64,000 nucleotides of DNA, taken from NCBI RefSeq assembly GCF_000284015.1, contig NC_016943.1, positions 2,955,541 to 3,019,540 on the forward strand, in the 5' to 3' direction. Position 1 is the stretch's first letter, and the number at the start of each line of letters is the position of its first letter. The stretch comes from Blastococcus saxobsidens DD2. GTDB lineage: Bacteria; Actinomycetota; Actinomycetes; Mycobacteriales; Geodermatophilaceae. The notes under the pieces were generated by a model that worked only from the letters and a program-made list of their open reading frames with translations, searched no databases and was not told the origin of the DNA. Position numbers and translations under genes: made by a program. Of the stretch, positions 34,129-52,703 are shown one piece after another.

Positions 34129-34869
34129 TCAGCCGGCCGCCAGGTCGCGCGCCACGGCACCGGCGGCCGCGGCCAGCGCCCGGGTCCACTCCGGCAGTCG
34201 CTCGCGGGAGTACCGCGCCGTGGGCGCGGCGAGGGACAGCGCGGCACCGGGACATCCACCGGCGGGCGGCACGGCGACCCCGACGGCGGTCAGCCCGGCC
34301 TCGGTCTCCTGGTCGTTGACGGCGAACCCCCGACGCCGGACCGCGCGCAGGTCCCGCCCGAGCTGCGCCGCCGCGGCCTCGTCCAAGGGCTCCAGGACGG
34401 CGGCGAGCTCCGCATCGTCCAGGGTGGCGAGCACCGCCTTGCCGCCCGAGCTGAGATGGGCCGGCAGCGCCCGGCCGGTGCGGTCGCCCACCCGCAGCAC
34501 CTGATCGCTCTCGACCGTCGCGACGAACCGGACCTCCGTGCCGGCCAGGAGCATGACGTTGGCCGTCTCCCCCACCGCCTCGACCAGCCGGTGCAGGTGC
34601 GGCAGGGCGACCTCGCGCAGCCGGGTGACCGACGCCTGCTGCACCGGCCCGCGCCGCAGCACCGGCCCGGCGGCGTACCGGCGGTCGGGCAGCTGCTCGG
34701 CGAAGTCGCGGTAGACGAGCATCCCCAGCAGCCGGTGGGCCGTCGAGACGGACACCTCCAGGCGTGCGGCGACGTCGGTCACCCGCATGGCTCCCTCCTG
34801 CTGCAGCAGGCTGGCCAGGAGCAGGGCGGAGTCGACGGAGGCGATCGCGTACGCCGGTCGGTTCTTCAC
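34129..34869 (-). CDS. IclR family transcriptional regulator
   Basis: A 246-residue IclR-type regulator. The N-terminal winged helix is at residues 8-60 (ALLLASLLQQEGAMRVTDVAARLEVSVSTAHR) and the effector domain follows (LRVGDRTGRALPAHLSSGGKAVLA, FAVNDQETEAGLTAVGV). It is divergent from the aromatic FAD monooxygenase, the usual arrangement for IclR regulators of aromatic catabolism, where the protein responds to the substrate or an intermediate. The GTG at 34869 is preferred; an ATG 17 codons upstream would overlap the putative operator. Confidence 0.88.
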   Translation of the reverse strand: MKNRPAYAIASVDSALLLASLLQQEGAMRVTDVAARLEVSVSTAHRLLGMLVYRDFAEQLPDRRYAAGPVLRRGPVQQASVTRLREVALPHLHRLVEAVGETANVMLLAGTEVRFVATVESDQVLRVGDRTGRALPAHLSSGGKAVLATLDDAELAAVLEPLDEAAAAQLGRDLRAVRRRGFAVNDQETEAGLTAVGVAVPPAGGCPGAALSLAAPTARYSRERLPEWTRALAAAAGAVARDLAAG

Positions 34870-34900
34870 TGCAGAAAACCATATCCCCTGCCTGCAGAAA
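34869..34900. promoter_or_regulatory. Candidate IclR operator region
   Basis: CTGCAGAAA occurs twice (34869-34877 and 34892-34900), 23 bases or about two helical turns apart, between the divergent IclR and monooxygenase genes. The region is AT-rich against its surroundings. It is the natural binding site for the adjacent regulator. Confidence 0.45.
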
Positions 34901-34957
34901 TGCGGGACCGTCGGGATCACGAGGCACCGCAGTCACGGATGGCAGGGGACGGACGAC

Positions 34958-36883: not shown

Positions 36884-36911
36884 GGACGTCCCGGAGCCCA
36901 GCAGGAGCCAG

Positions 36912-36942
36912 CCGGCCCGCCGTCCCCCGGGCGACGGGCCGG
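36912..36942 (+). terminator. Hairpin after the FAD hydroxylase
   Basis: CCGGCCCG (36912-36919) pairs with CGGGCCGG (36935-36942) around a 15-base loop that can pair partly. It lies 29 bases past the stop and separates this gene from the P450 operon. Confidence 0.5.
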
Positions 36943-36967
36943 TGTCCGTTCTGGACCCGCGCTTTTC

Positions 36968-36984: not shown

Positions 36985-36989
36985 CGACA

Positions 36990-37134: not shown

Positions 37135-38304
37135 ATGTCCGTCCCGACTTCTGCGATCGACCTCTTCGCCGACGAGGTGCTGGTCGACCCGTATCCGACC
37201 TACGCCGAGCTCCGCGACCTCGGCGGGGTCGTGCACCTGCCCGCGAACGGCGTCTACGCGCTCACCCGCTACGACGTCATCCGCACCGCGCTCGGCGACC
37301 CGGAGACGTTCTCGTCGCGGACGATCGGGTTCAACCCGATGGTCAACGAGGCCCTGCAGGGCACCTCGCTCGCCTCGGACCCGCCGGTCCACACCCAGCT
37401 CCGCGCGACGCTGACCGAGAACCTGTCCCCCCGGGCCCTGCGGGGTCTGAAGACGCAGATCGACGCCAAGGCCGCAACCCTGGTCGACGAGCTGGTCGCC
37501 CGCGGCTCCTTCGACGCCATCGACGCGCTCGCCCGCGTCTTCCCGCTCGAGGTCGTCGCCGACCTGATCGGCTTCACCGGCCAGGTCCGCGACAACATGC
37601 TCCGCTGGGGCCAGGCCGCGATGCAGGTCATCGGCCCGATGAACCAGCGGACCGCCGAGAACTTCCCCATCGCCGGCGAGCTGTACGCCTGGTGCTCGAG
37701 CGTCACCGCCGAGGACCTCGCGCCCGGCTCGGTGGGCCGCGGCATCTTCGACGCCGAGGCCCGCGGCGACATCCCGCCGAACACCGCGGGGCACATCATC
37801 CACCCGTACCTCGGGGCCGGGGTCGACACGACGGTCGCCGCCATCGGCAACATCGTCGCCCTCTTCGGGGCACACCCCGACCAGTTCGACCTGGTGCGCA
37901 AGGACCCCTCCCTCGTGCCGGCCGCCTTCGCCGAGGTGCTCCGGTACTGGGTGCCCATCCACGCCTGGGGCCGGCACGTGACGAAGGACGTCGTGATCGA
38001 CGGCGTCACCGTGCCCGCCGGCTCCCAGGTCGCCCTTCTCCTCGGTGCCGGCAACCGCGACCCGCGCCACTACCAGGACCCGGACGCCTTCCTGGTCGAG
38101 CGCAACCCCGTCGACCACCTCTCCTTCGGCTACGGCCCGCACGGCTGCGCCGGGCAGGGCCTGGCGCGGCTCGAGGCGCACGCCGTGATCGAGGCCCTGG
38201 CCACCCGGGTCCAGCGCCTGGTCGTGGGCGAGGAGATCCGCGTCCCCAGCAACATCACGCGCAGCATCGAGCAGCTGCCGGTCCTCGACGTGGTGCCGGC
38301 ATGA
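37135..38304 (+). CDS. Cytochrome P450
   Basis: A 389-residue soluble class I P450. The heme-thiolate cysteine is in FGYGPHGCAGQGLARLE and the ExxR motif is in EVLRYW. The I-helix oxygen-activation motif is LGAGVDTTVAA, with the acid-threonine pair. The N-terminal half (PYPTYAELRDLGGVV, SLASDPPVHTQLR, FPLEVVADLIGF) resembles bacterial P450s acting on small aromatic acids and ethers, such as CYP199-type demethylases; this is similarity of pattern only. It leads an operon in which the next two genes supply its ferredoxin and reductase. Confidence 0.95.
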   Translation: MSVPTSAIDLFADEVLVDPYPTYAELRDLGGVVHLPANGVYALTRYDVIRTALGDPETFSSRTIGFNPMVNEALQGTSLASDPPVHTQLRATLTENLSPRALRGLKTQIDAKAATLVDELVARGSFDAIDALARVFPLEVVADLIGFTGQVRDNMLRWGQAAMQVIGPMNQRTAENFPIAGELYAWCSSVTAEDLAPGSVGRGIFDAEARGDIPPNTAGHIIHPYLGAGVDTTVAAIGNIVALFGAHPDQFDLVRKDPSLVPAAFAEVLRYWVPIHAWGRHVTKDVVIDGVTVPAGSQVALLLGAGNRDPRHYQDPDAFLVERNPVDHLSFGYGPHGCAGQGLARLEAHAVIEALATRVQRLVVGEEIRVPSNITRSIEQLPVLDVVPA

Positions 38305-38348
38305 CCTCGACCGCAGCAGCGCAGGCCCCGACGAAGGGAAGGAACCCG

Positions 38349-38540
38349 ATGAGGATCGCCGCTGATCGCGACCGGTGCGAGGGCCACGGCCTCTGCGCCG
38401 ACACGGCGCCGGAGGTCTACGACCTCGACGACGAGGCGATCGTGGTGCTCCTCCACGAGGAGGTGCCGCCGGAGCTGGAGCGCAAGGCGGAGGCCGGGGC
38501 CCGGGTGTGCCCGGTCGCCGCGCTGCGCGTCGAGGCATGA
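38349..38540 (+). CDS. [3Fe-4S]-type ferredoxin, P450 redox partner
   Basis: A 63-residue ferredoxin with three cluster cysteines, in RDRCEGHGLCADTAP and RVCPVAAL, typical of the [3Fe-4S] ferredoxins paired with actinobacterial P450s. The ATG at 38349 has a strong GAAGGGAAGGAA ribosome site. An in-frame ATG at 38301 that overlaps the P450 stop would add a 16-residue low-complexity leader. Electrons pass from the reductase gene just downstream to the P450 upstream. The stop overlaps the reductase ATG (ATGA). Confidence 0.92.
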   Translation: MRIAADRDRCEGHGLCADTAPEVYDLDDEAIVVLLHEEVPPELERKAEAGARVCPVAALRVEA

Positions 38541-40024
38541 GCATGCGGCCGGGTCCTGCCGGGAGCATGCGGCCGGGTCCTGCCGGGAGCATGCGGCCGG
38601 GTCCTGCCGGGAGCATGCGGCCGGGTCCTGCCGGGAGCATGCGGCCGGGTCCTGCCGGGAGCATGCGGCCGGGTCCTGCCGGGAGCATGCGGCCGGGTCC
38701 TGCCGGGAGCATGCGGCCGGGTCCTGCCGGGAGCATGCGGCCGGGTCCTGCCGGGAGCATGCGGCCGGGTCCTGCCGGGAGCATGCGGCCGGGTCCTGCC
38801 GGGAGCATGCGGCCGGGTCCTGCCGGGAGCATGCGGCCGGGTCCTGCCGGGAGCATGCGGCCGGGTCCTGCCGGGACCGTGCGGGACGTCGTCGTCGTCG
38901 GCGGCTCCATCGCGGCGCTGACCGCGGTGGAGACGCTGCGGATGGAGGACTTCGACGGCCGAATCACCGTGCTCAGCGACGAGGACCTCCCGCCCTACAC
39001 CCGGGTGCCACTGTCGAAGGGCGTCCTCGCCGGGCGCGAGACCGCCGATGACGTGGTCCTGGCGCCCCTGTCCGCGGAGGTCGACCTGCACCTGCGCACG
39101 CCGGCCACCGGGTTGGACACGGACAACCGCGTCGTCCTCACCCCGGCCGGGCCCGTCCCCTATGACGGCCTGGTCATCGCCACCGGCGCGCGCGCCCGGC
39201 GCATCGGTACGCCGAACCAGGCCGAGCGGGTGCTGCGCAGCTACGACGACGGCCTGCGGCTGCGCGACCACCTCGGTCGCGCCTCCTCGGTCCTGATCGT
39301 CGGCGGAGGCTTCCTGGGGATGGAGATCGCCTCCACCGCGCGCGCCCTGGGCAGGGACGTGACCGTCGTCGACCTGGCTCCCCCGCTCGACCGCCTACTC
39401 GGGACGACGGTGGGCGGGCACGTCCGTTCCGTGGCCGAGCAGGCAGGGGTCCGCTTCGTCCTCACGCACGGCGGTGTCCGGCTCCTGGGCGCGCCCTTTC
39501 CGACGGCGGTCGAGACCGCCGACGGGCGACGGCTGGAGGCCGACCTCATCGTCTCCGCGGTCGGGGACGTGCCCAACGTCGAGTGGCTGGCGGGCTCCGG
39601 CCTGCCGGTCGCCGGCGGGGTGCTCGTCGACGAGCGCTGCCGGGTGAGCCCGCACGTGGTCGCCGCCGGCGACGTCGCGGTCTTCACCACCGGCGACGGC
39701 GGCCTCACCCGGATCCCCAGCTGGACCAACGCCGTGGAGCAGGCGCGCTGCGCGGCCAAGGCGCTGCTGCACGGGGACGACGCCCTCGCGTACCGGCCGT
39801 CCCGGTACGCCTGGACCGAGCAGTTCGGGCTCGACGTGAAGATGGTCGGCCCGGCGGACCCGCAGGGCGAGCCGGCCGTGCTCGACGGCTCGCTCGACGC
39901 CGGCTCGGCACTCCTGGCCTGGCCCGACGCCGGTGCGCCCCGGACCGTCGTCGCGGTCAACCACCACACCCCGCCCGCGAAGCTCAAGCGGCTCCTCAGA
40001 CCGGCTGCCGTGGCAGCCGCATGA
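38537..40024 (+). CDS. FAD-dependent ferredoxin reductase with a 14-copy N-terminal repeat
   Basis: A 495-residue protein as read from the ATG that overlaps the ferredoxin stop. Codons 2-113 are fourteen exact copies of an eight-residue unit (SMRPGPAG). The remaining 382 residues are a complete CamA-like NADH:ferredoxin reductase: FAD loop VVVVGGSIAALTAVETL, NAD loop VLIVGGGFLGMEIASTA, and VVAAGDVAVF near the FAD C-terminal contact. Typical members have about 390-410 residues and no repeat, so the repeat is an addition. Each copy has an in-frame ATG, so translation may begin within the array. Confidence 0.9.
   Translation: MSMRPGPAGSMRPGPAGSMRPGPAGSMRPGPAGSMRPGPAGSMRPGPAGSMRPGPAGSMRPGPAGSMRPGPAGSMRPGPAGSMRPGPAGSMRPGPAGSMRPGPAGSMRPGPAGTVRDVVVVGGSIAALTAVETLRMEDFDGRITVLSDEDLPPYTRVPLSKGVLAGRETADDVVLAPLSAEVDLHLRTPATGLDTDNRVVLTPAGPVPYDGLVIATGARARRIGTPNQAERVLRSYDDGLRLRDHLGRASSVLIVGGGFLGMEIASTARALGRDVTVVDLAPPLDRLLGTTVGGHVRSVAEQAGVRFVLTHGGVRLLGAPFPTAVETADGRRLEADLIVSAVGDVPNVEWLAGSGLPVAGGVLVDERCRVSPHVVAAGDVAVFTTGDGGLTRIPSWTNAVEQARCAAKALLHGDDALAYRPSRYAWTEQFGLDVKMVGPADPQGEPAVLDGSLDAGSALLAWPDAGAPRTVVAVNHHTPPAKLKRLLRPAAVAAA
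38540..38875 (+). repeat. Perfect tandem repeat, 14 copies of a 24-bp unit
   Basis: The unit begins AGCATGCGGCCGGGTCCTG and ends CCGGG. Fourteen copies span 336 bases with no mismatch I can find. Twenty-four is a multiple of three, so copy-number changes keep the frame. The array starts at the ferredoxin stop and ends five bases before the GTG of the TVRDVVVVGG core. There are no spacers, so this is not a CRISPR array. Confidence 0.97.
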
Positions 40025-40053
40025 CGACCGGACCCGAGAGGACCTCTGCACAG

Positions 40054-41031
40054 ATGAACGGCACGAGCCGACACGTCAACACGGTCCTCGGCCCCGTACC
40101 CGCCGACGACCTCGGCGTCGTCGCGGTCCACGAAGCGCTGCTCTCGGTCGTCCCCGGAGCGGAGCACGGCTACGACATCTCGATGGACCGCGCGGAGATC
40201 TTCGAGGTCCTCGCCGCAAAGCTCACCGCCTTCAAGGCGGCCGGGGGCGGGACCGTCGTCGACAGCACCGGCATGTTCCACGGCCGCGACACGAAGCTCT
40301 ACGAGGCCCTGTCCCGCGCCACCGGCGTGCACGTCGTCGCCTCGACGGGCATGGGCCCCGAGGAGAACCTCGGCGGCTACTTCCTCACCCCGCAGACCGA
40401 CCCGCCGACGCCGTGGCCAGCGGAGAAGTTCGCCGACCTCTTCGGCCGGGAGGTCACCGAGGGCATGGTGGTCCCGCGCGTGGAGCGTCGGTGCTCCGCC
40501 GGCCTGGTCGCCACCGCGGCGACCCGCGACGGGGTGACGCCCACCGACGAGAGCCTGTTCCGCGGCGCGGCCCGGGCGGCACTGGCCACCGGCGTCCCGG
40601 TCTCGATCCGTTACGGCGCCGACGCCGTCGCCGAGCTGCAGCTGGTCCTGGACGAGGGGCTGCCGGCCGACCGCGTCGTCGTCGGCGACCTCGACCGGAC
40701 CGAGGCCGTCGCGGCCGGCTGGCCCGCCGCCGTGGCCGAACGCGGCGCCTACGTCGCCGTCGACCACGTCGGCCTGAACGACTCGGACGACCACGTCCGC
40801 GACGCCGAGCGGGCCGCCCTGGTCGCCGAGCTCGTCGCGGCCGGGCACGCGGAACGCGTGCTGCTCTCGGGCAACGCGATCGGGGTCGCGAAGGGGCACC
40901 CCGCGTACGAGCTGCCCTACGCGCACGTGCTCACCGCCTTCGTCCCGCTCCTCGCGTCGCACGGGGTCGCGGACGAGGACATCCAGCGCGTCCTGGTCGC
41001 CAACCCGCGCGACCTGCTCGCGGTGCGCTGA
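40054..41031 (+). CDS. Phosphotriesterase-family protein with degenerate metal site
   Basis: A 325-residue TIM-barrel protein clearly related to the next gene over its whole length. Five of six metal-ligand positions are changed against the intact paralogue: HEA for HEH (Ala28), Ala153 for the carboxylated lysine, Arg186 and Asp212 for the two histidines, and Asn274 for the last aspartate. It cannot bind the binuclear centre in the usual way and is probably a structural or regulatory partner. The ATG at 40054 has GAGAGGA upstream; an ATG at 40021 overlaps the reductase stop and adds 11 residues. Confidence 0.88.
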   Translation: MNGTSRHVNTVLGPVPADDLGVVAVHEALLSVVPGAEHGYDISMDRAEIFEVLAAKLTAFKAAGGGTVVDSTGMFHGRDTKLYEALSRATGVHVVASTGMGPEENLGGYFLTPQTDPPTPWPAEKFADLFGREVTEGMVVPRVERRCSAGLVATAATRDGVTPTDESLFRGAARAALATGVPVSIRYGADAVAELQLVLDEGLPADRVVVGDLDRTEAVAAGWPAAVAERGAYVAVDHVGLNDSDDHVRDAERAALVAELVAAGHAERVLLSGNAIGVAKGHPAYELPYAHVLTAFVPLLASHGVADEDIQRVLVANPRDLLAVR

Positions 41032-41059
41032 GCCGGATCCCAGGAGAGAGGCGAAAGAC

Positions 41060-42028
41060 ATGTCCCGTGTGAACACCGTCCTGGGCCCGATCGCGGCCGA
41101 GGAGCTCGGCTTCGTCGCCGTGCACGAGCACATCGGCTACGGCATGCCCGGCTCGGAGCTCGACACCCGGTGGTGGAAGACCCCCGAGCAGCGGTACGAG
41201 GAGACCGTCCCGAAGCTGCGGCAGTTCGCCGAGCACAGCCAGCCCTACGGCGGCCCGACCTTCGTGGACGCCACCGGCATCTGCAACGGCCGCGACGTCG
41301 ACTACTACAAGTCGCTCTCGGCCAAGACCGGCGTGCACATCGTCGCGGCCACCGGCTTCGTCGGGGGTGACACCGCGCTGCGCTTCTTCGCCGACGCCCC
41401 CGTCGACTACCTGATGCGCCAGTTCGTCCACGAGATCACCGTCGGCATCGGCGACACCGGCAGCCTGGCGGGGATCATCAAGGTCGGGGTGAGCCGGGGC
41501 TTCCGGATGAAGGAACTGGACCTGCGCATCTACCGTGCCGCGGCCCGCGCCGCGCTGCTCACCGGGGTGCCGATCTTCACCCACCTCGCCGTCGACGTGG
41601 AGCCGGCGCTCGCCGTCTTCGCCGAGGAGGGCCTGCCGCTGGACCGGGTGCTCTTCGGGCACGCCGATGACGGCGTCAGCCAGGGCAAGGTCAACGAGGC
41701 CGCGATCCTCGGCGGCGGCGGCCGGATCGGCTTCGACACCTTCGGCTACGACCTCGAGCTGCCCGACCCGCCGTTCTGGGGCCGGCACCGCCGCGAGCGC
41801 CTCGAGCACTTCCTCCGGCTGGTCGGCGAGGGCCACGTCGACCAGGTGCTTGCCTCCGCGGACGCCAATTGCAGCCCGCTCGGCTGGCCCGGCGTCAAGG
41901 GCCACACCGTCAACTACATCTTCGAACAGCTCATCCCCGACCTGCAGGAGGAAGGCGTCGACGAGGCCACGATTTACCGGATCTTCGTCACCAACCCCGC
42001 CGACTTCCTGACCCTCACGACGAACTGA
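41060..42028 (+). CDS. Phosphotriesterase-like metal hydrolase (lactonase/esterase type)
   Basis: A 322-residue amidohydrolase-superfamily enzyme with a full binuclear metal site: His22 and His24 in AVHEHIGYG, Lys141 in GIIKVGVSRG, His175 in IFTHLAVD, His201 in LFGHADDG and Asp268 in LASADANCSPLGW. Such enzymes hydrolyse lactones, phosphotriesters or N-acyl compounds; the operon suggests a lactone or ester product of the monooxygenases. The ATG follows CAGGAGAGAGGCGAAAGAC, 28 bases after its degenerate paralogue. Possibly a heteromer with it. Confidence 0.92.
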   Translation: MSRVNTVLGPIAAEELGFVAVHEHIGYGMPGSELDTRWWKTPEQRYEETVPKLRQFAEHSQPYGGPTFVDATGICNGRDVDYYKSLSAKTGVHIVAATGFVGGDTALRFFADAPVDYLMRQFVHEITVGIGDTGSLAGIIKVGVSRGFRMKELDLRIYRAAARAALLTGVPIFTHLAVDVEPALAVFAEEGLPLDRVLFGHADDGVSQGKVNEAAILGGGGRIGFDTFGYDLELPDPPFWGRHRRERLEHFLRLVGEGHVDQVLASADANCSPLGWPGVKGHTVNYIFEQLIPDLQEEGVDEATIYRIFVTNPADFLTLTTN

Positions 42029-42040
42029 GAGAGCACAGCC

Positions 42041-44073: not shown

Positions 44074-45011
44074 CGGCGGTGGGCGTGCCGATCCACCCGC
44101 TGGTCTCGCCGTGGGGCCGGTTCGGGCTCTACAGCTTCTACATCGACGCCCCGGGACCGGCGATCGTCGACACCGGGATCGCCTCGTCCCCGGCCGAGGG
44201 CATGGCGCCCGCGCTGGCGGCCCTGGGCCGCCGGATCGAGGACGTGCGCTGGATCCTGCTCACTCACGGGCACATCGACCACGTCGGCGGGGCGCACGCC
44301 CTCTGGGAGCTCACCGGCCGGCGCGCGCAGGTCGTGATCTCCGAGGCCGACGCACCGCTGCTGCGCTCCCGGCGGGCACACGTGCAGAACTACCTGGACG
44401 TGCGCGCGCAGTACCTGGGCGATCCCGAGGCCGAGGCGAAGCAGACCGCCATGGCCGCCGGCGCGATCTCCGGCGAGATGGAGCCGCACGTGCTGGTCCG
44501 CGGCGGCGAGACGCTGTCCCTGGGCGGCGACGTCACCGTCTCGGTGCATGCCATCCCTGGCCACACGGCCGGGTCGGTCGCCTACGTGGTCGACGGCCAG
44601 GACGACGTCTTCGTCGGCGACGCCGTGCAGGTGCACGGGGCCGCCAACGGGTTCCCGGGATACGAGGACCCACGCTCCTACCGCGCGAGCCTGGAGCATC
44701 TGCGCGACGTCGTCCGTCCTCGGCACCTGTACCTGGGCCATCCGTACCGCACGGCCGAGGGCGTGCCGTACGGCGTCGAGCTCGACCGCGCGCAGGCGCA
44801 GGAGGCGCTGCAGGGCAGTTTCGACGTCGAGGCTCGCGTCGCTGCGGCGGCCGCCCGAGCGCTGGCCGACGGTCTGGAGCAGACCGATTCGCCGTACTCG
44901 CCGTTCGCCCGCGTCGCCGAGGAGGTCGGTTACGCCGGCGACCCCACCCTCGAACCGTCCCCGTTCTTCACCACCCTGCACGGCTACAAGGAGCTGCACT
45001 CACATGGCTGA
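44070..45011 (+). CDS. Metallo-beta-lactamase-fold hydrolase
   Basis: A 313-residue MBL-fold protein with the zinc motif LLTHGHIDHVGG (HxHxDH) and further ligands in AIPGHTAGSVAY, VFVGDAVQV and LYLGHPYRT. Glyoxalase II-like and lactonase-like enzymes look like this; the C-terminal 75 residues are a helical extension. The GTG at 44070 overlaps the preceding stop (GTGA). As the second possible lactone or thioester hydrolase of the operon it may act on a CoA ester or lactone. Confidence 0.9.
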   Translation: MTAVGVPIHPLVSPWGRFGLYSFYIDAPGPAIVDTGIASSPAEGMAPALAALGRRIEDVRWILLTHGHIDHVGGAHALWELTGRRAQVVISEADAPLLRSRRAHVQNYLDVRAQYLGDPEAEAKQTAMAAGAISGEMEPHVLVRGGETLSLGGDVTVSVHAIPGHTAGSVAYVVDGQDDVFVGDAVQVHGAANGFPGYEDPRSYRASLEHLRDVVRPRHLYLGHPYRTAEGVPYGVELDRAQAQEALQGSFDVEARVAAAAARALADGLEQTDSPYSPFARVAEEVGYAGDPTLEPSPFFTTLHGYKELHSHG

Positions 45012-46752
45012 CATCCGCCAGGTCCAGGCCGGCACGCAGACGATCGCCGTCCGCAAGGACCTCCGGGTCCCGATGCGCGACGGCGTCACGCTCGCCGCCG
45101 ACGTCTACTCCGGCGTCGAGGACACCCCGCGCCCGGCGCTCGTCGCGCTCAGCCCGTACGGCAAGGAGCTGCAGGCGCTCGCGCTCACCATGCCGCCGCA
45201 GCGCCGGCCCAGCCCGATGTGGGACGGCTGCATCGAGGCCGGCGACATCGCCCGCGTCGTCGGTGAGGGCTACGCCCACGTGATCGGCGATCTGCGCGGG
45301 TCGGGGGCCTCCGACGGCGCGCACATCGGCAACTACAACGCCGGCGGTGTGCCCTTGGGCCAGGACGCCTACGACGTCATCGAGTGGGTTGCCGAGCAGC
45401 CGTGGTGCGACGGCAACGTCGGCATGATCGGCATCTCCTACTACGGCTCGATGCAGGTGCTGGCCGCCGCCGAGCGCCCCCCGTCGTTGAAGGCGATCTT
45501 CGTCTCCGGCGGTCACTTCGACTTCTACGAGACCACCTACCACGGCGGGATCATGTGGTTCATGCCGCGCGCGGCCCGCGAGGGCCGCGGGGGCGACTCC
45601 GGCTGGGCGTTCACCGACCGGATCACCTCTCGCGTGCTCGAGACCTACTCCCCCGTGGACGTCGCGCAGCGGGTCGCCAAGCGGTTGCGGGACCCGGACG
45701 TCGCCGCCTGGCCGAACCTGGTGCACGTCCTGAACTACCCGAAGCACCACGAGGCGTGGTTCGACATCGTGCTCAACGAGCTCGACGGCGAGTGGTACGA
45801 GGAGCGCAACCCGGTCAACCTCGCCCGGAACATCGACATCCCGGTCTACCTGCAGATCGACCAGGGCCGCGGCTGGACCGTCGACGGCCACATCGAGCTG
45901 TTCGAGACCCTGACCGGTCCCAAGAAGCTCGTCATCGGCTCCTACCCGCCCATGCAGTCGCGCCCCTGGGTCGAGGAGCACGACGAGATGTTCCGCTGGT
46001 ACGAGTACTGGCTCAAGGGCGTCGACAACGGGGTCATGGACGAGCCCGCGGTGAGCGTGTTCGTGGAGGGCTCCCGCGAGGTGGTCACCGCCGGGCAGTG
46101 GCCGCCGAAGGACGTCGAGTACCGCTCGCTGCACCTGCGTCCGCGCCGGAAGCTCTCCTCTGCGCCGGAGCCGATGGGCCCCGAGCACGCCGCACCCGAC
46201 GGCTTCTACCAGGCCCCGCTGACCGTCACCGACAAGGTCGAGATCCTCAGCTGGAGCACCGCTCCGTTCGAGGAGCCCACGGAGATGATCGGGTCCGGTG
46301 CGGCGCACCTGTTCGCCGAGATCGACCAGCCGGACACCAACTTCATCCTGCGCATGTGGGACGTCGCCCCGAAGGGCAGCCGTCAGCTGATCACCACCGG
46401 CTACCTCAAGGCCTCGCACCGCGAGCTGGACGAGGAGCGGACCACCGAGGGGAACCCGTACCACCCGCACACCCGCGCGGTTCCGGTGGAGCCGGGCGCC
46501 ATCGAGGAGTACGTGCTGCGGCTCTACCCGTTCGCGGCCACGTTCCGGCCGGGGCACCGGCTGGTGGCGGAGCTGTCCTGCGACGAGCCGCTGGCCGACG
46601 ACCACAACTCCCTCTTGCCGCCGGACGCCTTCCACCTCCCGGTGGGCCGGCCGGTCACGCACAAGATCTACCGCGACGCGCTCCACCCGTCCCGGCTCGT
46701 GCTGCCGTTCACGACACAAGAAGCCACGACACAGGAGGCAAGGCATGTGTGA
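45004..46752 (+). CDS. CocE/NonD family serine hydrolase
   Basis: A 582-residue X-Pro dipeptidyl-peptidase-fold hydrolase. The nucleophile is in GNVGMIGISYYGSMQVLAA (about residue 154). It opens with VRKDLRVPMRDGVTLAADVY and has a C-terminal jelly-roll domain (about 400-575). Relatives are cocaine esterase and other acylases of bulky esters or amides. No signal peptide is visible. It overlaps the MBL gene by eight bases and the Tat-MBL gene by eight bases. A short direct duplication (ACGACACA, twice, 15 bases apart) lies at its 3' end. Confidence 0.92.
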   Translation: MADIRQVQAGTQTIAVRKDLRVPMRDGVTLAADVYSGVEDTPRPALVALSPYGKELQALALTMPPQRRPSPMWDGCIEAGDIARVVGEGYAHVIGDLRGSGASDGAHIGNYNAGGVPLGQDAYDVIEWVAEQPWCDGNVGMIGISYYGSMQVLAAAERPPSLKAIFVSGGHFDFYETTYHGGIMWFMPRAAREGRGGDSGWAFTDRITSRVLETYSPVDVAQRVAKRLRDPDVAAWPNLVHVLNYPKHHEAWFDIVLNELDGEWYEERNPVNLARNIDIPVYLQIDQGRGWTVDGHIELFETLTGPKKLVIGSYPPMQSRPWVEEHDEMFRWYEYWLKGVDNGVMDEPAVSVFVEGSREVVTAGQWPPKDVEYRSLHLRPRRKLSSAPEPMGPEHAAPDGFYQAPLTVTDKVEILSWSTAPFEEPTEMIGSGAAHLFAEIDQPDTNFILRMWDVAPKGSRQLITTGYLKASHRELDEERTTEGNPYHPHTRAVPVEPGAIEEYVLRLYPFAATFRPGHRLVAELSCDEPLADDHNSLLPPDAFHLPVGRPVTHKIYRDALHPSRLVLPFTTQEATTQEARHV

Positions 46753-47935
46753 CGTCATCGCCCAGGTGGCAGGGGATCCCTCCCTGCCCGAGTCCAACCG
46801 GCGTGCGTTTCTCAAGGTGCTCGGTACCACCGCCGCCGCGGGTGGCCTCATGGCGGCCGGGGTGAGGCCGGCGTCAGCCGGGGGCCCGCGGCAGCACGGC
46901 CGCGGACGCCTGGGGAGGACCCGCCTGGTCCTGCTCGGCACCGCGGGGGGACCGGGGTTCCTGGAGGGCGAGCGGTTCGGCATCTCGACGGCCGTCGCGT
47001 TCGACGACCGCGTGTACGTGGTCGACCTGGGACTCGGCTCACTCCTGCGCCTCCGGCAGAGCGGGCTGTCCGGCCCCACCGGCATGGCCACGGCGCTCAC
47101 GAACGTGCGGGGCATCTTCTTCACCCACATGCACAGCGACCACCTGATGGACTGGCCGGCCACCTACGCCACCGGGCCCATCAACACCGCCGGCCGTGAT
47201 CGAGCGGCTCCGCCCATCCGCGTATTCGGCCCCGGCGACCGGGGCACCCTGCCCGCCTACCGGGGCCTGGCCGGCGACGTGGCGCCGCCGCTGTTCCACC
47301 CGGAGGACCCCACCCCCGGGATCGAGGCCATGACCGGATACCTGATGAAGGCCTGGGCCGCCGACTTCAACGACCGCGCCCGCGACACCGCCTTCGCGCC
47401 GCCGCAGAACCTCTTCGACGTCCAGGACATCGATCTGACCGGGACGTGGGCGATCGACGAGGAAGGCGTGCCGCCCCGCATCGCGCCGTTCGAGGTGTGG
47501 ACCGACGACGAGGTCCGGATCACCGCCACGCTGGTCGACCACCGGCCCACGGCGCCGTCCTTCGGTTTCCGGTTCGACACCCCGGACGGCTCCGTCACCG
47601 TCTCTGGTGACACGACCGTGAGCCCGAACCTCATCGACCTCGCGAAGGACACCGACTACCTGGTGCACGAGGTAATCGATCCGCTCTGGGTCGAGCGCCT
47701 GGTGCAGACCCTTCCGCCGCACATCGGGGGGCCGCTCGGTGGGCACCTGATCGACAGCCACACGACGATCGAGCAGGTCGGTGCAGAGGTGGCCGAGCCC
47801 GCTGGAGCGAAAAACCTCGTGCTCACCCACCTGCTACCGGAAGGCAACCCCAAGGGCCGCTGGCAGCAGGCGCGGCGCGGCTACTCCGGCCGGCTCATCG
47901 TCGGCGAGGACCTGATGGAGCTCGGCGTGGGCTGA
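46745..47935 (+). CDS. Tat-exported metallo-beta-lactamase-fold protein (arylsulfatase/lactonase-like)
   Basis: A 396-residue protein with a twin-arginine signal (SNRRAFLKVLGTTAAAGG, then AGVRPASAGG as the likely cleavage region, near residue 46). The mature part is an RNase Z/arylsulfatase-like MBL domain with FFTHMHSDHLMDWPA, the metal aspartate in VTVSGDTTVSPNL and LVLTHLLP. It is thus an extracytoplasmic zinc hydrolase, perhaps acting on the compound before uptake. AGGAGGCAAGGC precedes the ATG. Last gene of the P450 operon; a strong terminator follows. Confidence 0.9.
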   Translation: MCDVIAQVAGDPSLPESNRRAFLKVLGTTAAAGGLMAAGVRPASAGGPRQHGRGRLGRTRLVLLGTAGGPGFLEGERFGISTAVAFDDRVYVVDLGLGSLLRLRQSGLSGPTGMATALTNVRGIFFTHMHSDHLMDWPATYATGPINTAGRDRAAPPIRVFGPGDRGTLPAYRGLAGDVAPPLFHPEDPTPGIEAMTGYLMKAWAADFNDRARDTAFAPPQNLFDVQDIDLTGTWAIDEEGVPPRIAPFEVWTDDEVRITATLVDHRPTAPSFGFRFDTPDGSVTVSGDTTVSPNLIDLAKDTDYLVHEVIDPLWVERLVQTLPPHIGGPLGGHLIDSHTTIEQVGAEVAEPAGAKNLVLTHLLPEGNPKGRWQQARRGYSGRLIVGEDLMELGVG

Positions 47936-47958: not shown

Positions 47959-48002
47959 CTCCGGCCGGGACGTCCAGGAGGACCTGGACGTTCCGGCCGG
48001 AG
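47959..48002 (+). terminator. Strong terminator of the P450 catabolic operon
   Basis: Arms 47959-47978 and 47983-48002 (CTCCGGCCGGGACGTCCAGG and its partner) pair over 20 positions with one G-T pair around an AGGA loop. It starts 24 bases past the stop of the Tat-exported protein and separates the operon from the ABC transporter genes. Confidence 0.8.
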
Positions 48003-48153: not shown

Positions 48154-49188
48154 GTGCCCGCCGTACCCGCACCCGCCCCGTCGCCCGCTCCCGCGGCGCC
48201 ACCGGCAGCCCCCGAGGCCCCGGCCGCCCGCGTCAGCGGCCCGTCGGTGGTCGGCACGTTCGTCTCCCGCTTCGCCGTCATCGGCGTGTGGCTGGCGCTC
48301 ATCGCCCTCTACGGGATCCTCGAACCCGACCGCTTCCTCACCACCGGCACCTTCCAGACCATCTTCAGCAGCCAGCAGACGCTGGTCTTCCTGTGCGCGG
48401 CACTGCTGTGCACCATCTGCGTGGGCGAGTTCGTCGATCTTTCCGTGGCCTGGGTCCTCGGTCTGTCGGCCACGCTGCTGCCGGTCCTGGTGGTCGACCA
48501 CGGCTGGAACGTGTGGGCGGCCTCGCTCGCCGCGATCGTCACGGCCGCCCTGGTCGGGGCGGTGAACGGCTTCCTCGTCGTCCGGCTGGGCGTGAACACC
48601 ATCGTCGTGACCCTGGGCATGGGCACCCTGCTGCTCGGCGTGGCCCTGTGGCTGACCGACCTGACCACGGTGAGCGGCCTCCCCCGCGAGTTCGGCGAGA
48701 TCTCGCTGTACCGCGTCGCCGGGCTGCCGGTCTCCTTCTACTGGGGCCTGCTGGTGATGCTCGGCTTCGCCTACGTGCTCATGGCGACCCCGCTGGGTCG
48801 CAACATGCGCTTCGTCGCGGCCAATCGCGAGGTGAGCCGGCTCGCCGGCATCCGGGTCGACCGGATCCGCTTCGGCGCCTTCGTGTCGGCCGGTGTGATC
48901 GGTGGCCTCGGGGGCGTGCTGTCGGCCGCGGCGGTGGGGGGTTTCGACCCCGGCTCGTCGCAGACCTACCTGCTGCCGACGTTCGCGGCGACCTTCCTGG
49001 GCACCGCGATCCTCCTGCCGGGTCGCTTCAACCCGCTCGGCACCTGGATCGCCGTCTACTTCCTCGCCACCGGCATCCTCGGCCTCAACCTCCTCGGCTA
49101 CACCGGCTGGGTCACCAGCGTCTTCTACGGCGGCGTGCTGGTGTTCGCCGTCTCCGTCTCCACGCTGCTCCACCGCCGCACCGGCTGA
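48154..49188 (+). CDS. ABC transporter permease, ribose/autoinducer-2 (RbsC) type
   Basis: A 344-residue inner-membrane permease with about eight to ten helices after a proline/alanine-rich leader of 25 residues. Family motifs are EFVDLSVAWVLGLSATLLPV, NGFLVVRLGVNTIVVTLGMG and NMRFVAANREVSRLAGI. This class normally imports sugars, purine nucleosides or AI-2, but here it lies in a catabolic island and may take up its substrate. The GTG at 48154 has AGGAGG six bases upstream; a GTG at 48136 has none. Confidence 0.9.
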   Translation: MPAVPAPAPSPAPAAPPAAPEAPAARVSGPSVVGTFVSRFAVIGVWLALIALYGILEPDRFLTTGTFQTIFSSQQTLVFLCAALLCTICVGEFVDLSVAWVLGLSATLLPVLVVDHGWNVWAASLAAIVTAALVGAVNGFLVVRLGVNTIVVTLGMGTLLLGVALWLTDLTTVSGLPREFGEISLYRVAGLPVSFYWGLLVMLGFAYVLMATPLGRNMRFVAANREVSRLAGIRVDRIRFGAFVSAGVIGGLGGVLSAAAVGGFDPGSSQTYLLPTFAATFLGTAILLPGRFNPLGTWIAVYFLATGILGLNLLGYTGWVTSVFYGGVLVFAVSVSTLLHRRTG

Positions 49189-49252: not shown

Positions 49253-50419
49253 ATGCGCATCTGCCGCTCCACGATCGGCTCGACCGGCGCCGCCGTCCTC
49301 GCCGTCGCGCTGCTCGCCGCCTGCTCCCCCGGCACCACCGCCTTCGACTCCGAGAGCGCGTCCGGTGCGAGCGGAGCTGCCGACGGCGCCCTCGCGGACG
49401 TGCAGGCCGACGTCGAGGCGGCGATGGAGCCGCGGGACAGCTTCGAGGTGCCCACTGAGCCGGTCGACCCGTCGGCGCTGGCCGGACAGACCGTCTACTA
49501 CATCCCGCTGACCGCGCAGAACCGCGTCTTCCAGCTGTACGGCGAGAAGATCGGCGAGGCGCTGGCGACCGTGGGGGTCGATCTGCAGGTCTGCGACGGC
49601 GGCGCCAACCCCTCGCAGGTCGGCGGCTGCCTCGAGCAGGCCATCGGGGCCGGCGCCGCGGCGATCGTCACAGACTCCATCCCCTACGGGATGGCGGCCA
49701 ACGGCATCGAGGCCGCCCGCGCGGCCGGTATCCCGGTGATCATCGGCAACCAGCTTCCCAGCGACGAGCAGCCGGCCGACGAGACGCTCGCCTACGTCAA
49801 CGCCCCGACGTCGGAGATGGTGGCCACCGTCGCCGACTGGATGACCGTCGACTCCGGCGGCGACGCGACCGTCGTCCTCCAGAAGGTCACCGACAACCCC
49901 TCGACCATCGCCTTCGCCGAGGCCGGCGAGGAGGCGTTCGCCGAGAACTGCCCCGACTGCACCGTCGTCGTCAACGAGGTCTCCGCCTCGAACTTCCCGC
50001 TCATCCCCTCCTCGACCAGCGCGGCGATCCTGAGCAACCCCGACACCGGCTACGTGCTAAGCGAGTTCGAGGTCTTCGTGCAGCCCACCATCGCCGGCAT
50101 CCAGCAGACCCCGAACGCGGACCAGATCCAGATCGGCACGGCCGCCGCCTCCCTGGACGGGCTGCAGCAGCTCGCCGACGACCAGCAGCTGCAGGCCGAC
50201 GTCGCGCAGAACTTCCGCTACCAGGGCTGGGCCACCGCCGATGCCATCTTCCGGCTCGTGGCGGGCCAGGAGGTGCCCGAGTACGACGTCTCCTACCGCC
50301 TGTTCACTCCTGCGAACATCGGCGACATCGAGCTCACCGAGGAAGCCCAGGCTTCGGGCGAGTGGTTCGGCCCGACCGACTACGAGCAGGAGTTCGCCGC
50401 GCTCTGGGGCCAGAACTGA
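49253..50419 (+). CDS. ABC transporter substrate-binding lipoprotein (periplasmic-binding protein type I fold)
   Basis: A 388-residue lipoprotein: signal peptide with lipobox LLAACS (cysteine about residue 24), a disordered linker to residue 75, then a type I sugar-binding fold (VYYIPLTAQNRVFQLYGEKIG, AIVTDSIPYGMAANGIEAAR, VIIGNQLPSD). It hands the ligand to the permease upstream. The internal cysteine pairs (CDGGANPSQVGGC and CPDC) could form disulfides. The ligand is not predictable from the fold alone. Confidence 0.9.
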   Translation: MRICRSTIGSTGAAVLAVALLAACSPGTTAFDSESASGASGAADGALADVQADVEAAMEPRDSFEVPTEPVDPSALAGQTVYYIPLTAQNRVFQLYGEKIGEALATVGVDLQVCDGGANPSQVGGCLEQAIGAGAAAIVTDSIPYGMAANGIEAARAAGIPVIIGNQLPSDEQPADETLAYVNAPTSEMVATVADWMTVDSGGDATVVLQKVTDNPSTIAFAEAGEEAFAENCPDCTVVVNEVSASNFPLIPSSTSAAILSNPDTGYVLSEFEVFVQPTIAGIQQTPNADQIQIGTAAASLDGLQQLADDQQLQADVAQNFRYQGWATADAIFRLVAGQEVPEYDVSYRLFTPANIGDIELTEEAQASGEWFGPTDYEQEFAALWGQN

Positions 50420-50472
50420 GCCCGGCCGTCGCGGAGGCCCCGGCACCCGCCACGAGCGAGGAGGGCACGGGC

Positions 50473-52035
50473 ATGGTGCGCCTCAGCGTCGAGAAGGTCG
50501 CCAAGACCTTCGGTCGGTTCCAGGCGTTGCGCGACGTGCACCTGGACGTGGCGCCCGGGGAGATCCACGGGTTGATCGGGCAGAACGGGTCCGGCAAGTC
50601 CACGCTCGCCAAGGTCCTGACCGGGTACCACGCACCGGACGCCGGCGGCCGGGTGCTGGTGGACGGGGAGCCGCTGCGGCTCCCCGTCCACCCCCGCAAG
50701 GCCGCGGCGCGCGGGCTGGCGGTGGTCCACCAGAGCCTCGGCCTGGTCGACGACCTCACCGTGGTGGAGAACCTCCGGGTGGGCCGGTTCCGCGCGAACC
50801 GGCTCACCCGCGCCATCCGCTGGGACGAGGAGCGCCGCGACGCCTCCGCGGTGCTCGAGCGCCTCGGCCGGCCGGTTCCGCTGGACGCCCGGGTGGGCGA
50901 GCTCTCCGAGGAGGAGCGGGCCACGGTCGCCATCGCGCGGGCGCTGCAGGACGCGACCCCCGGGCGCGGGCTCATCGTGTTCGACGAGTCCACCCGCTCG
51001 CTCAGCCGCGCCGGCCTCGAGCACTTCTACGACATGCTCGAGGATGTCGTCGCCACCGGGACGGCCGCCCTGCTGATCAGCCACCACATGGAGGAGGTGC
51101 TGGAGGCGACCGACCGGGTGACCGTGCTGCGCGACGGCGTGGTGGTCGAGGCCGGGCTGCCCACGGCCGACCTGACGGAGAACGACCTGGTCCGCGCGAT
51201 CATGGGCCGCACGCTGGAGCAGGTCATCCGCCGGGCTCCCTCCGGGCCGGCTCCCACGGGATCCGACGGCGGAGTCATCGTCCGCGGGCTGCGCGGCGAG
51301 CTGGTGGCCGGCGTCGACCTGGAGCTGCACCCCGGCGAGGTGGTCGGGGTGACCGGCCTGAGCGGCTCCGGGCACGACGAGCTGCCCTACCTGCTGACCG
51401 GCGCCCGGCCAGCCCGGCAGGGCACCCTGCAGGTGGGCGAGGACCGCCACAACCTGGCGCGCTTCGACGTCGGGACGGCGATCGCGGCCGGCGTGGCGCT
51501 GGTGCCGGAGGGGCGCGAGCACGCGGGCCTGGCGCTGGAGCTCACCGTGGCCGACAACGTCCTGCTGCCGCGGCGCCGCACCCGCTCCGCAGTCCTCCCG
51601 GTCGAGCGGGCCGCGGAGACCGCCGTCGTCGGCGAGTGGGTGGAGCGGCTCGACGTCCGCCCCCCGGACCCGTCCCAGCTGGTCGGGAAGCTCAGCGGCG
51701 GCAACCAGCAGAAGGTGCTGCTGGCCAAGTGGCTGGCCACCGGCCCGCGGTTGCTCGTCCTGCACGAGCCCACCCAGGCGGTGGACGTCGGTGCCCGCCA
51801 GACCATCAGCGAGGCCGTCCGCCGGGCGGCCACCGAGGGCTGCGCGGTGCTCGTCGCCGGTACGGACGAGACCGAGCTGACCATGCTCTGCGATCGGGTC
51901 CTGGTGTTCCGCGACGGCCGGCCGGTTCGCGAGCTGACCGGGGACTTCACCCCGGACGAGGTGGTCGAGTCGATCTTCTCCGGCCACATCCGCAAGCGGC
52001 TCCGGTCGGCGACCCCGCCGGCCGCGAACGGCTGA
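50473..52035 (+). CDS. ABC transporter ATPase with two nucleotide domains (RbsA/MglA type)
   Basis: A 520-residue double ATPase. The first domain has Walker A GQNGSGKSTL, signature ELSEEERATVAIARAL and Walker B LIVFDESTRSLSR. The second has a weak Walker A (GLSGSGHDE), a good signature (KLSGGNQQKVLLAKWL) and a Walker B reading LLVLHEPTQAVDVGAR, with histidine in place of the aspartate. Reduced second sites are normal in this family, but LSEEE in the first signature is unusual. The ATG at 50473 lies 53 bases after the binding-protein stop. Works with the two genes before it. Confidence 0.9.
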   Translation: MVRLSVEKVAKTFGRFQALRDVHLDVAPGEIHGLIGQNGSGKSTLAKVLTGYHAPDAGGRVLVDGEPLRLPVHPRKAAARGLAVVHQSLGLVDDLTVVENLRVGRFRANRLTRAIRWDEERRDASAVLERLGRPVPLDARVGELSEEERATVAIARALQDATPGRGLIVFDESTRSLSRAGLEHFYDMLEDVVATGTAALLISHHMEEVLEATDRVTVLRDGVVVEAGLPTADLTENDLVRAIMGRTLEQVIRRAPSGPAPTGSDGGVIVRGLRGELVAGVDLELHPGEVVGVTGLSGSGHDELPYLLTGARPARQGTLQVGEDRHNLARFDVGTAIAAGVALVPEGREHAGLALELTVADNVLLPRRRTRSAVLPVERAAETAVVGEWVERLDVRPPDPSQLVGKLSGGNQQKVLLAKWLATGPRLLVLHEPTQAVDVGARQTISEAVRRAATEGCAVLVAGTDETELTMLCDRVLVFRDGRPVRELTGDFTPDEVVESIFSGHIRKRLRSATPPAANG

Positions 52036-52118
52036 GAGATGCCGATGTCGGACCCGTCGAGCCGGCACGCCTTCCGACGGCCGGCTCAGCGGCGTTCCGC
52101 ACTGCTTATGGTTGCCCG

Positions 52119-52703
52119 GTGAGCCTCCGCCAAGCCCAGAAGCGCCTGACCCGTGAGCTGCTGCTCAAAGAGGGTCTGGGCCTCTTCGAGGGAAAGGGCT
52201 ACGTGGCCACGACGGTCGACGACATCGCCGCCGCAGCCGGGACGACCCGCCAGACCTTCTACCAGCACTTCCCGTCGAAGGCCGCGCTCATGAAGGAGCT
52301 CATCACCGCCGTCGACGGCCTGCTGATCGCCGTCGACGACCCCCGGCTCTCGGCGGTCGTGGAGTCCGGGGACCGCGAGAAGATCCACGCCTGGCTGGGC
52401 AAGAAGATCGACCAGTGGCCGGCGATCAAGCCCTACGTGACGGCCGCGCACGAGGCGGCTGCGCACGACGCCGAGATCCAGGAAGCGATCGACGTCTGGT
52501 TCGAGAGCGCGATCAGCGACATCCACCAGGGCCTGGAGAAGGCGGAGCGGTTCACCCCGTCCTCGCGGCGGGTGCGGGGCACGCTGGCCTTCGGTCAGCT
52601 GGAGTTCGCCTCGGTCCGGTGGATGCGGCACGGCTGGGACGTCGACCGGGACGAGACCCACGCGGTGCTCACAGAGTCGTGGATGAACCTGCTCGTCGGC
52701 TGA
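52119..52703 (+). CDS. TetR family transcriptional regulator
   Basis: A 194-residue regulator. The N-terminal helix-turn-helix is clear (YVATTVDDIAAAAGTTRQTFYQHFPSKAALM, residues 28-58) and an all-helical ligand domain follows. It lies 83 bases after the ABC ATPase on the same strand and is the local candidate to control the transporter or the P450 operon. A TTATGG -10-like hexamer seven bases before the GTG suggests its own leaderless transcript. Ligand unknown. Confidence 0.88.
   Translation: MSLRQAQKRLTRELLLKEGLGLFEGKGYVATTVDDIAAAAGTTRQTFYQHFPSKAALMKELITAVDGLLIAVDDPRLSAVVESGDREKIHAWLGKKIDQWPAIKPYVTAAHEAAAHDAEIQEAIDVWFESAISDIHQGLEKAERFTPSSRRVRGTLAFGQLEFASVRWMRHGWDVDRDETHAVLTESWMNLLVG

What the first reader, a model, noticed from the sequence alone, without database searches (positions are those of the whole stretch)
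34129..52703. A dedicated P450-monooxygenase-hydrolase-importer island for an unidentified compound
Two regulators, two FAD monooxygenases, a complete P450 redox chain, two phosphotriesterase-like proteins, three other hydrolases of different folds (HSL, CocE, MBL), a Tat-exported MBL protein and an ABC importer are contiguous. Nine to ten genes (37135-47935) are translationally coupled or nearly so and end at one strong terminator. No ring-cleaving dioxygenase is present, so this does not match standard aromatic pathways I know. The gene set suggests oxygenation followed by hydrolysis of an ester, lactone or similar bond, with import and an extracytoplasmic pre-processing step. The pathway and substrate are inference.
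Basis: partly seen in the sequence, partly recalled or inferred. Interest (0 to 1): 0.8.

Follow-up and report, generated by a model that had tools for sequence, protein, structure and literature searches.

The report
Mobile multi-hydrolase cassette feeding 3-hydroxybenzoate breakdown
Soil bacteria of distant groups share a fixed six-gene set of oxidising and hydrolysing enzymes, usually with a P450, that appears to break an unknown phenolic compound down to 3-hydroxybenzoate; I found no description of it, so its substrate is an open and testable question.

Summary
The window, from a Blastococcus-like genome, carries ten coupled genes (37135-47935). Their core, PTE1-PTE2-FAD monooxygenase-HSL-MBL1-CocE (40021-46752), is conserved: 78 of 80 retrieved actinobacterial and proteobacterial loci hold all six, 71 of these 78 in the same order and strand. 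It is rare: 1 of 395 other sampled phylum genomes has PTE2 at E 1e-60.

Two corrections. The 'phenol hydroxylase' is MobA-type, a 3-hydroxybenzoate 4-hydroxylase. PTE1 has lost five of six metal ligands while PTE2 keeps all six: a pseudo-enzyme beside an enzyme.

Two different 3-hydroxybenzoate hydroxylases, MobA and 3HB6H (with a gentisate operon), recur beside the cassette; 46 of 49 tested carrier genomes have at least one. A CoA-transferase/thiolase set also recurs. I infer that the cassette releases 3-hydroxybenzoate, probably with a 3-oxo acid, from an unidentified aromatic substrate.

The ABC importer is an occasional add-on (6 of 80 loci), the Tat-exported MBL a local one (0 of 80). Among the papers listed by ten searches I saw no description. 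The substrate is unknown.

The parts
34129..34920 (-). IclR-family regulator, divergent from mobA
   Evidence: PF01614/PF09339; 68% identical over 228 residues to the IclR beside a gentisate operon in locus L164
34787..36883 (+). MobA-type 3-hydroxybenzoate 4-hydroxylase; similarity to MobA begins at residue 58 of the called ORF, so the true start is probably near 34958
   Evidence: PDB 2dkh 862 bits over 633 residues; NF006144 1023 bits
37135..38304 (+). cytochrome P450, closest solved relatives CYP199
   Evidence: PF00067; 9g9q E 5e-74; relative of 55% identity or more in 45 of 80 cassette stretches
38301..38540 (+). single-cluster ferredoxin (Fer4_15)
   Evidence: PF13459; overlaps P450 by 4 bp
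38537..40024 (+). ferredoxin reductase, 495 aa if read from ATG 38537, with 14 in-frame SMRPGPAG repeats at its N-terminus (or 381 aa from GTG 38879)
   Evidence: PF07992; open frame; repeat array 38539-38884
40021..41031 (+). PTE1: degenerate phosphotriesterase-fold protein, five of six metal ligands lost; proposed pseudo-enzyme partner of PTE2
   Evidence: PF02126; ligand columns in 74 sequences; model matches PTE folds, TM 0.69-0.75 among the 50 listed
41060..42028 (+). PTE2: phosphotriesterase-family metallohydrolase with a complete metal site
   Evidence: PF02126; six ligands kept in 76-77 of 77
42041..43153 (+). group A FAD monooxygenase
   Evidence: PF01494; closest solved: tropone 2-monooxygenase 8rqh, then 6-hydroxynicotinate 3-monooxygenase
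43150..44073 (+). HSL-family alpha/beta hydrolase
   Evidence: PF07859; NF058653 318 bits, below its cut-off of 350
44070..45011 (+). MBL1, metallo-beta-lactamase-fold hydrolase
   Evidence: PF00753; HxHxDH and the other His/Asp motifs conserved in 71 sequences
45004..46752 (+). CocE/NonD-family hydrolase, the most conserved of the seven proteins compared
   Evidence: TIGR00976 242 bits; 300 of 582 positions at least 97% identical in 75 sequences
46745..47935 (+). Tat-type-signal MBL-fold protein; local addition
   Evidence: PF12706; N-terminal SNRRAFLK; 0 of 80 loci
47959..48002 (+). stable hairpin that may end or protect the transcript; no U-tract
   Evidence: fold; not found by terminator scan
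48247..49188 (+). ABC permease (BPD_transp_2); accessory
   Evidence: PF02653; 6 of 80 loci
49253..50419 (+). ABC substrate-binding protein (Peripla_BP_4); accessory
   Evidence: PF13407; 5 of 80 loci
50473..52035 (+). ABC ATPase with two ABC_tran domains; accessory
   Evidence: PF00005 two stretches; 6 of 80 loci
52119..52703 (+). TetR-family regulator; TetR relatives recur beside the cassette
   Evidence: PF00440; relatives in 58 of 80 loci in the ORF clustering

Best explanation
The region is a horizontally spread catabolic module for an unidentified aromatic compound, most likely a natural phenolic. SHOWN by sequence comparison: a fixed core PTE1-PTE2-FADmo-HSL-MBL1-CocE; a P450/ferredoxin/reductase that is usually but not always present; recurrent companions MobA or 3HB6H with the gentisate operon, and a 3-oxoacid CoA-transferase with thiolase; PTE1 without a metal site beside an intact PTE2. 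INFERRED: the P450 and the FAD monooxygenase oxidise the substrate; the PTE2/PTE1 complex, MBL1, HSL and CocE then cut ester, lactone or similar bonds one after another; one product is 3-hydroxybenzoate, which the window species turns into protocatechuate with MobA and other carriers into gentisate with 3HB6H; a second product is a 3-oxo acid (3-oxoadipate-like) that is activated by CoA transfer and thiolysed. PTE1 acts as a non-catalytic subunit or stabiliser of PTE2. Horizontal spread is inferred from the patchy distribution.
For: All six core genes in 78 of 80 loci, same order and strand in 71 of 78. MobA-like or 3HB6H in 46 of 49 searched carrier genomes: 26 with 3HB6H, 24 with MobA, 4 both, 3 neither. 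In a 396-genome phylum sample only 3 genomes have 3HB6H at the same E-value, one of which, G055, is the sample's only other cassette carrier. One of the two hydroxylases lies inside the fetched stretch (about 11-21 kb) in 27 of 80 loci, 8 genera, in differing arrangements. 13 of the 26 genome-wide 3HB6H genes were inspected: 13 of 13 lie with a gentisate dioxygenase and an FAH hydrolase, 12 with the isomerase. A P450 relative (E 1e-110, 51% or more) exists in the genomes of 19 of 30 tested loci that had none in the stretch, and lies beside the gentisate operon in L137 and L138. CoA-transferase A within the stretch in 21 of 80; thiolase and CoA-transferase directly after CocE in L068, L077, L083, L084, and in line with the gentisate operon in L154. 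Transporter related to the aromatic-acid/H+ symport family (TIGR00895, 325 bits, below its cut-off of 419) inside or beside the core in 4 of 80. PTE ligands.
Against: No enzyme has been assayed and the substrate is not deduced. Three tested carriers (G457, G486, G487) have neither hydroxylase at the thresholds used. MobA is common in some carrier genera (PMC12343579 passages: 185 mobA genes annotated in 142 Kocuria genomes) and no MobA background was counted, so its presence alone is weak evidence; the 7 remote MobA neighbourhoods inspected held no other cassette-linked gene that I labelled. The 3HB6H enrichment is stronger, but the phylum control scored only 4 candidates per genome against up to 36 and may undercount, and 15 of the 26 matches are only 47-53% identical. 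18 of the 21 local 3HB6H loci are Streptomyces and not independent. No P450 relative was found in 11 of 30 tested genomes lacking it locally, so it is not obligatory. Importers differ between loci, which does not single out an aromatic acid. MobA and 3HB6H share the FAD_binding_3 fold, so they are different enzymes but not unrelated ones.
Confidence: 0.6

Rival explanations
1. The cassette is a real pathway, but 3-hydroxybenzoate is not its product: MobA, gentisate and CoA-transferase genes are neighbours only because aromatic catabolic genes cluster in the same regions.
For: The L041 stretch also holds an intradiol dioxygenase and a muconate-lactonising-type enzyme, and L142 (same contig as L034) holds an AMP-binding ligase and other phenylpropanoid-type genes named by eye. 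MobA is widespread in some genera (PMC12343579 passages). The 7 remote MobA neighbourhoods inspected showed no other link.
Against: 46 of 49 tested carriers hold one of the two hydroxylases; 3HB6H is rare in the phylum sample (3 of 396, with the limits told above).
Confidence: 0.22
2. Detoxification rather than catabolism: the hydrolases and oxygenases inactivate an antibiotic or plant toxin.
For: FAD monooxygenase and HSL have sub-threshold similarity to tetracycline destructases and chloramphenicol hydrolase; EmrB-type MFS transporters (TIGR00711, 112 bits, below its cut-off) adjoin some loci (family f10, 24 loci).
Against: Ten coupled genes with mineralisation companions (gentisate pathway, CoA-transferase, thiolase) are more than detoxification needs; the resistance-type hits among the rows shown are below their curated cut-offs.
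Confidence: 0.09
3. Biosynthetic tailoring cluster for a natural product.
For: P450, FAD monooxygenase and hydrolases also occur in such clusters (general knowledge).
Against: No core synthase among the Pfam hits of the region's genes, presence across two phyla, and degradative companions. Five stretches (four Rhodococcus, one Streptosporangium) do hold a peptide-synthetase-like gene (named by eye), but it is not shared by the other loci.
Confidence: 0.04

Closest known systems
3-hydroxybenzoate 4-hydroxylase MobA (PDB 2dkh; Comamonas testosteroni) and the 3-hydroxybenzoate-to-protocatechuate route
   Same: Window protein 34787-36883 aligns over 633 residues at 862 bits; the MobA route and the alternative 6-hydroxylase route are described in PMC3572157 (passages seen).
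   Different: MobA alone acts on free 3-hydroxybenzoate; here it is tied to a P450-hydrolase cassette.
Gentisate pathway with 3-hydroxybenzoate 6-hydroxylase (PDB 4bjy)
   Same: Recurrent neighbour of the cassette in other carriers; f11 aligns with 4bjy at 398 bits; PMC4726752 passages name 4BJY as that enzyme.
   Different: Not found in the window genome at E 1e-75 (4 candidates scored).
CYP199 P450s (oxidation of substituted benzoates, recalled)
   Same: Closest solved P450s by sequence.
   Different: Own ferredoxin and reductase; subfamily and substrate untested.
Phosphotriesterase/lactonase family (PF02126)
   Same: PTE2 keeps the binuclear metal site.
   Different: PTE1 is a conserved adjacent paralogue without the site; a search for papers holding phosphotriesterase, pseudoenzyme and operon found none.
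Cocaine esterase CocE (PDB 1ju3, 3ida)
   Same: Same CocE/NonD family and GxSYxG nucleophile motif.
   Different: Matches in separate pieces only, best piece 68.5 bits of 107.5 in all; substrate unknown.

Membership tests
MobA 3-hydroxybenzoate 4-hydroxylase | FAD_binding_3 plus phenol-hydroxylase C-terminal domain, full-length similarity to MobA | tested here: met
MobA 3-hydroxybenzoate 4-hydroxylase | active-site residues D75, H135, K247, Y271 (numbering and roles recalled) | tested here: met
   all four aligned to the same residue, counted by hand in the printed alignment
MobA 3-hydroxybenzoate 4-hydroxylase | converts 3-hydroxybenzoate to protocatechuate | not testable with these tools
   needs assay
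Phosphotriesterase family, PTE2 | HxH, Lys, His, His, Asp metal ligands (recalled) | tested here: met
   H22, H24, K141, H175, H201, D268 in 76-77 of 77 sequences
Phosphotriesterase family as active enzyme, PTE1 | HxH, Lys, His, His, Asp metal ligands (recalled) | tested here: not met
   only the first His is kept, in 66 of 74; the other five are absent in 74 of 74
CYP199 | sequence identity above the CYP family threshold | tested here: inconclusive
   best PDB match is CYP199, E 5e-74, identity not computed
CocE/NonD hydrolases | above curated cut-off of TIGR00976 | tested here: met
   241.6 bits against 66.3
Group A flavoprotein monooxygenase | single-chain FAD_binding_3 with GxGxxG and GD motifs (recalled) | tested here: met
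Decarboxylating hydroxylase (salicylate, 6-hydroxynicotinate or vanillate type) | decarboxylative hydroxylation | not testable with these tools
   similarity only

The most novel reading that the evidence does not exclude
The core is an aerobic aromatic-ring-opening route that uses no ring-cleaving dioxygenase: flavin (and P450) oxygenation turns one ring of a two-part phenolic into a dearomatised or lactone form, which the PTE2/PTE1 pair, MBL1, HSL and CocE hydrolyse stepwise to a 3-oxo acid, releasing 3-hydroxybenzoate from the other part, with a phosphotriesterase-fold pseudo-enzyme as obligate subunit.
Probability: 0.15. Interest if true: 0.85.

Novelty: new variant of a known kind. Interest (0 to 1): 0.58.

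Why it matters
A fixed set of four presumably active hydrolases, one flavoenzyme and a conserved pseudo-phosphotriesterase, shared by distant soil bacteria, points to a substrate that, as far as I could see, nobody has assigned. The link to 3-hydroxybenzoate turns an open-ended substrate hunt into a small set of growth and metabolite tests, and PTE1/PTE2 would be a test case for pseudo-enzymes in the amidohydrolase superfamily.

Tried and rejected
Substrate guesses weighed from general knowledge and not supported by any search: tropolones, xanthones and benzophenones, urolithins, diphenyl ethers such as 3-phenoxybenzoate, salicinoids, benzoxazinoids, purine-type heterocycles. None accounts for all parts; none is claimed.

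Nineteen stretches around P450 copies outside the fetched cassette stretches were read to find the substrate. P450 was labelled in 18 of 19 (L136 gave no gene calls), a reductase in 13, the LysR gene in 13, 3HB6H in 2 (L137, L138), the CoA-transferase in 1 (L133, on the same contig as its cassette); no further shared enzyme appeared. Clustering of other neighbours gave mainly transporters, regulators and single-lineage genes. Twenty stretches around remote hydroxylases gave gentisate-operon genes for 13 of 13 3HB6H copies and nothing shared but a MarR-type gene (named by eye, 3 of 7) for MobA.

Ten literature searches: 17, 28 and 75 returned nothing; searches matched 729, 210 and 30,225 papers, of which 25, 20 and 15 were listed. 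I saw titles and abstract starts of the listed papers, and made term look-ups in PMC10986565 (none of five terms found), PMC12343579, PMC4726752 and PMC3572157 (passages); none described the gene set. Only open-licence PMC text was searched. The ARAGORN tRNA-Leu at 40721-40809(-) lies inside the PTE1 coding sequence and is taken as a false positive. The FAD monooxygenase structure job was interrupted and that line was dropped.
Full report
What is there. The window lies at 2955541-3019540 of a one-contig 4.88-Mb genome whose cassette is closest to those of Blastococcus and Geodermatophilus. Ten genes, P450 to the Tat-type MBL, are coupled by 4- or 8-bp overlaps or gaps of 12 and 28 bp. A very stable hairpin follows them, without a U-tract.

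The conserved unit. One scan of named bacterial genomes with PTE2 found 199 stretches encoding a relative and returned the best 80 loci; all counts 'of 80' are on these. All six of PTE1, PTE2, FADmo, HSL, MBL1 and CocE were found in 78 of 80; the exceptions are L039 (MBL1 and CocE not found) and L076 (stretch ends at a contig end). Order and strand are identical in 71 of those 78. They carry 30 genus-level labels, two of them MAGs without a genus name, including Streptomyces, Rhodococcus, Nocardioides, Microbacterium, Paraburkholderia, Caballeronia, Janthinobacterium, Paracoccus and Marinobacterium. In a 396-genome sample of the phylum, the window's own genome and one other (G055) have PTE2 at E 1e-60 (up to 5 candidates scored per genome), and 0 of 22 genus-mates have the FAD monooxygenase at that E-value. 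The cassette is therefore rare, patchy and broad, which fits horizontal transfer. In a midpoint-rooted tree of 72 loci plus the window, without support values, the five proteobacterial loci included form one clade; 8 of the 80 loci, five of them proteobacterial, were left out because too few of their proteins were called. A Caballeronia insecticola plasmid carries TetR-P450-ferredoxin-reductase-core-transporter as a compact unit.

What is not conserved. The Tat-type MBL protein has no relative in any of the 80 stretches at 30% identity and E 1e-20. The ABC importer is found in 6 of 80 for permease and ATPase and 5 of 80 for the binding protein; only L029 exceeds 51% identity. In Blastococcus tunisiensis (L029) the importer follows CocE without room for the extra MBL gene.

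The PTE pair. In 77 aligned PTE2 sequences (window plus 76) the six metal ligands are kept in 76 or 77. In 74 aligned PTE1 sequences only the first histidine is kept, in 66; the second histidine, the lysine, the next two histidines and the aspartate are absent in 74 of 74 (ligand roles recalled). PTE1 is present beside PTE2 in 80 of 80 loci, and its model (mean pLDDT 74, 26 sequences) still matches phosphotriesterases at TM 0.69-0.75 among the 50 listed, with low-confidence stretches at 110-132 and 148-160 among others. I read PTE1 as a non-catalytic partner of PTE2; physical contact is not shown.

The link to 3-hydroxybenzoate. The window's large FAD monooxygenase aligns with MobA (PDB 2dkh) over 633 residues at 862 bits, and the residues that I recall as active-site residues (D75, H135, K247, Y271) are identical. 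In other carriers the neighbouring genes include a relative of 3-hydroxybenzoate 6-hydroxylase (398 bits to 4bjy; 332 bits to NF006021, below its cut-off of 459; 4BJY named as that enzyme in passages of PMC4726752), a gentisate dioxygenase relative, a maleylpyruvate-isomerase-like gene (named by eye) and an FAH-type hydrolase. The two hydroxylases share a flavin-binding fold (PF01494) but are different enzymes with different products; both routes are described in PMC3572157 (passages). Within the fetched stretches one or the other is present in 27 of 80 loci and 8 genera; 18 of the 21 loci with 3HB6H are Streptomyces. Genome-wide, 26 of 49 searched non-Streptomyces carriers have 3HB6H at E 1e-75, 24 of 49 have a MobA-like protein at E 1e-150, 4 have both and 3 have neither. 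In the phylum sample 3 of 396 genomes have 3HB6H at that E-value, one of them the only other carrier of that sample. Fisher's test on 26/49 against 2/395 (G055 taken out; the window's own genome, a carrier without 3HB6H, left in) gives about 2e-26. That control scored 4 candidates per genome, carriers are related to one another, and no MobA background was counted, so the figure overstates the case; the direction is clear. MobA by itself is weak evidence, since passages of PMC12343579 report 185 mobA genes in 142 Kocuria genomes. Of the 26 genome-wide 3HB6H genes I inspected 13: 13 of 13 lie with a gentisate dioxygenase and an FAH hydrolase, 12 also with the isomerase; the IclR of one such operon (L164) is 68% identical over 228 residues to the window's IclR. 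The 7 MobA neighbourhoods inspected showed no further shared pathway gene.

A second product. A 3-oxoacid CoA-transferase (A subunit in 21 of 80 stretches, B in 19, thiolase in 13) follows CocE directly, thiolase first, in L068, L077, L083 and L084 and stands in line with the gentisate operon in L154. The gentisate route itself yields pyruvate and fumarate (PMC3572157 passage), so a second, 3-oxo-acid product is likely; whether it is 3-oxoadipate is not shown.

The P450. A relative of 55% identity or more lies in 45 of 80 stretches. Of the 35 loci without one, 30 were tested genome-wide and 19 have one at E 1e-110, in some cases just outside the fetched stretch (L034, L104). Of 19 such stretches read, 13 have the reductase and 13 the LysR gene, and two adjoin the gentisate operon (L137, L138). 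It is a frequent but not obligatory part. Its closest solved relatives are CYP199 enzymes, known to me as oxidisers of substituted benzoates.

How it most likely works. Uptake by varied transporters; oxidation by the P450 where present and by the FAD monooxygenase; successive hydrolyses by PTE2 (with PTE1), MBL1, HSL and CocE; release of 3-hydroxybenzoate and a 3-oxo acid; lower pathways: MobA to protocatechuate in the window species, whose genome has four intradiol-dioxygenase matches, two of them adjacent, or 3HB6H to gentisate elsewhere. The order of steps and the substrate are inference. I did not find a known compound that accounts for every part.

Novelty. Ten searches of open-licence PMC full text listed no paper that, by its title and abstract start, describes this gene set; three of them were capped lists of larger result sets, and subscription literature was not searchable. 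Catabolic operons are a known kind; this one is an undescribed variant as far as I could see.

Noticed in passing
38539-38884: Near-perfect 24-bp tandem repeat, 14.4 copies, exactly at the ferredoxin/reductase junction and in frame, giving the reductase 14 SMRPGPAG repeats. The exact unit was found in 2 of the 144 loci held, both from the window's own genome, and in L027 and L029 the reductase starts at or beside the ferredoxin stop. It could vary in copy number by slippage.
   Followed up: partly
L128:6363-6911(-) and L130:11205-11732(+): In both Georgenia P450 stretches a protein with an HtaA domain (PF04213) adjoins the LysR gene; possibly heme-related.
   Followed up: partly
L035, L036, L041: A CobW-type GTPase (PF02492 and PF07683 in the L041 copy) with a His-rich stretch lies just upstream of the cassette, a possible metal chaperone for PTE2 or MBL1.
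   Followed up: partly
L093:5400-7330: A second, diverged PTE1-PTE2 pair (36% and 44% identical) lies two genes upstream of the cassette in Microbacterium allomyrinae, perhaps a sister pathway.
   Followed up: no
40721-40809(-): ARAGORN reports a tRNA-Leu(cag) antisense inside PTE1; probably a false positive.
   Followed up: no
53301-61751: The downstream genes are a separate sugar-alcohol-type cluster: mannitol dehydrogenase, two LacI regulators, SDR, ABC importer.
   Followed up: no
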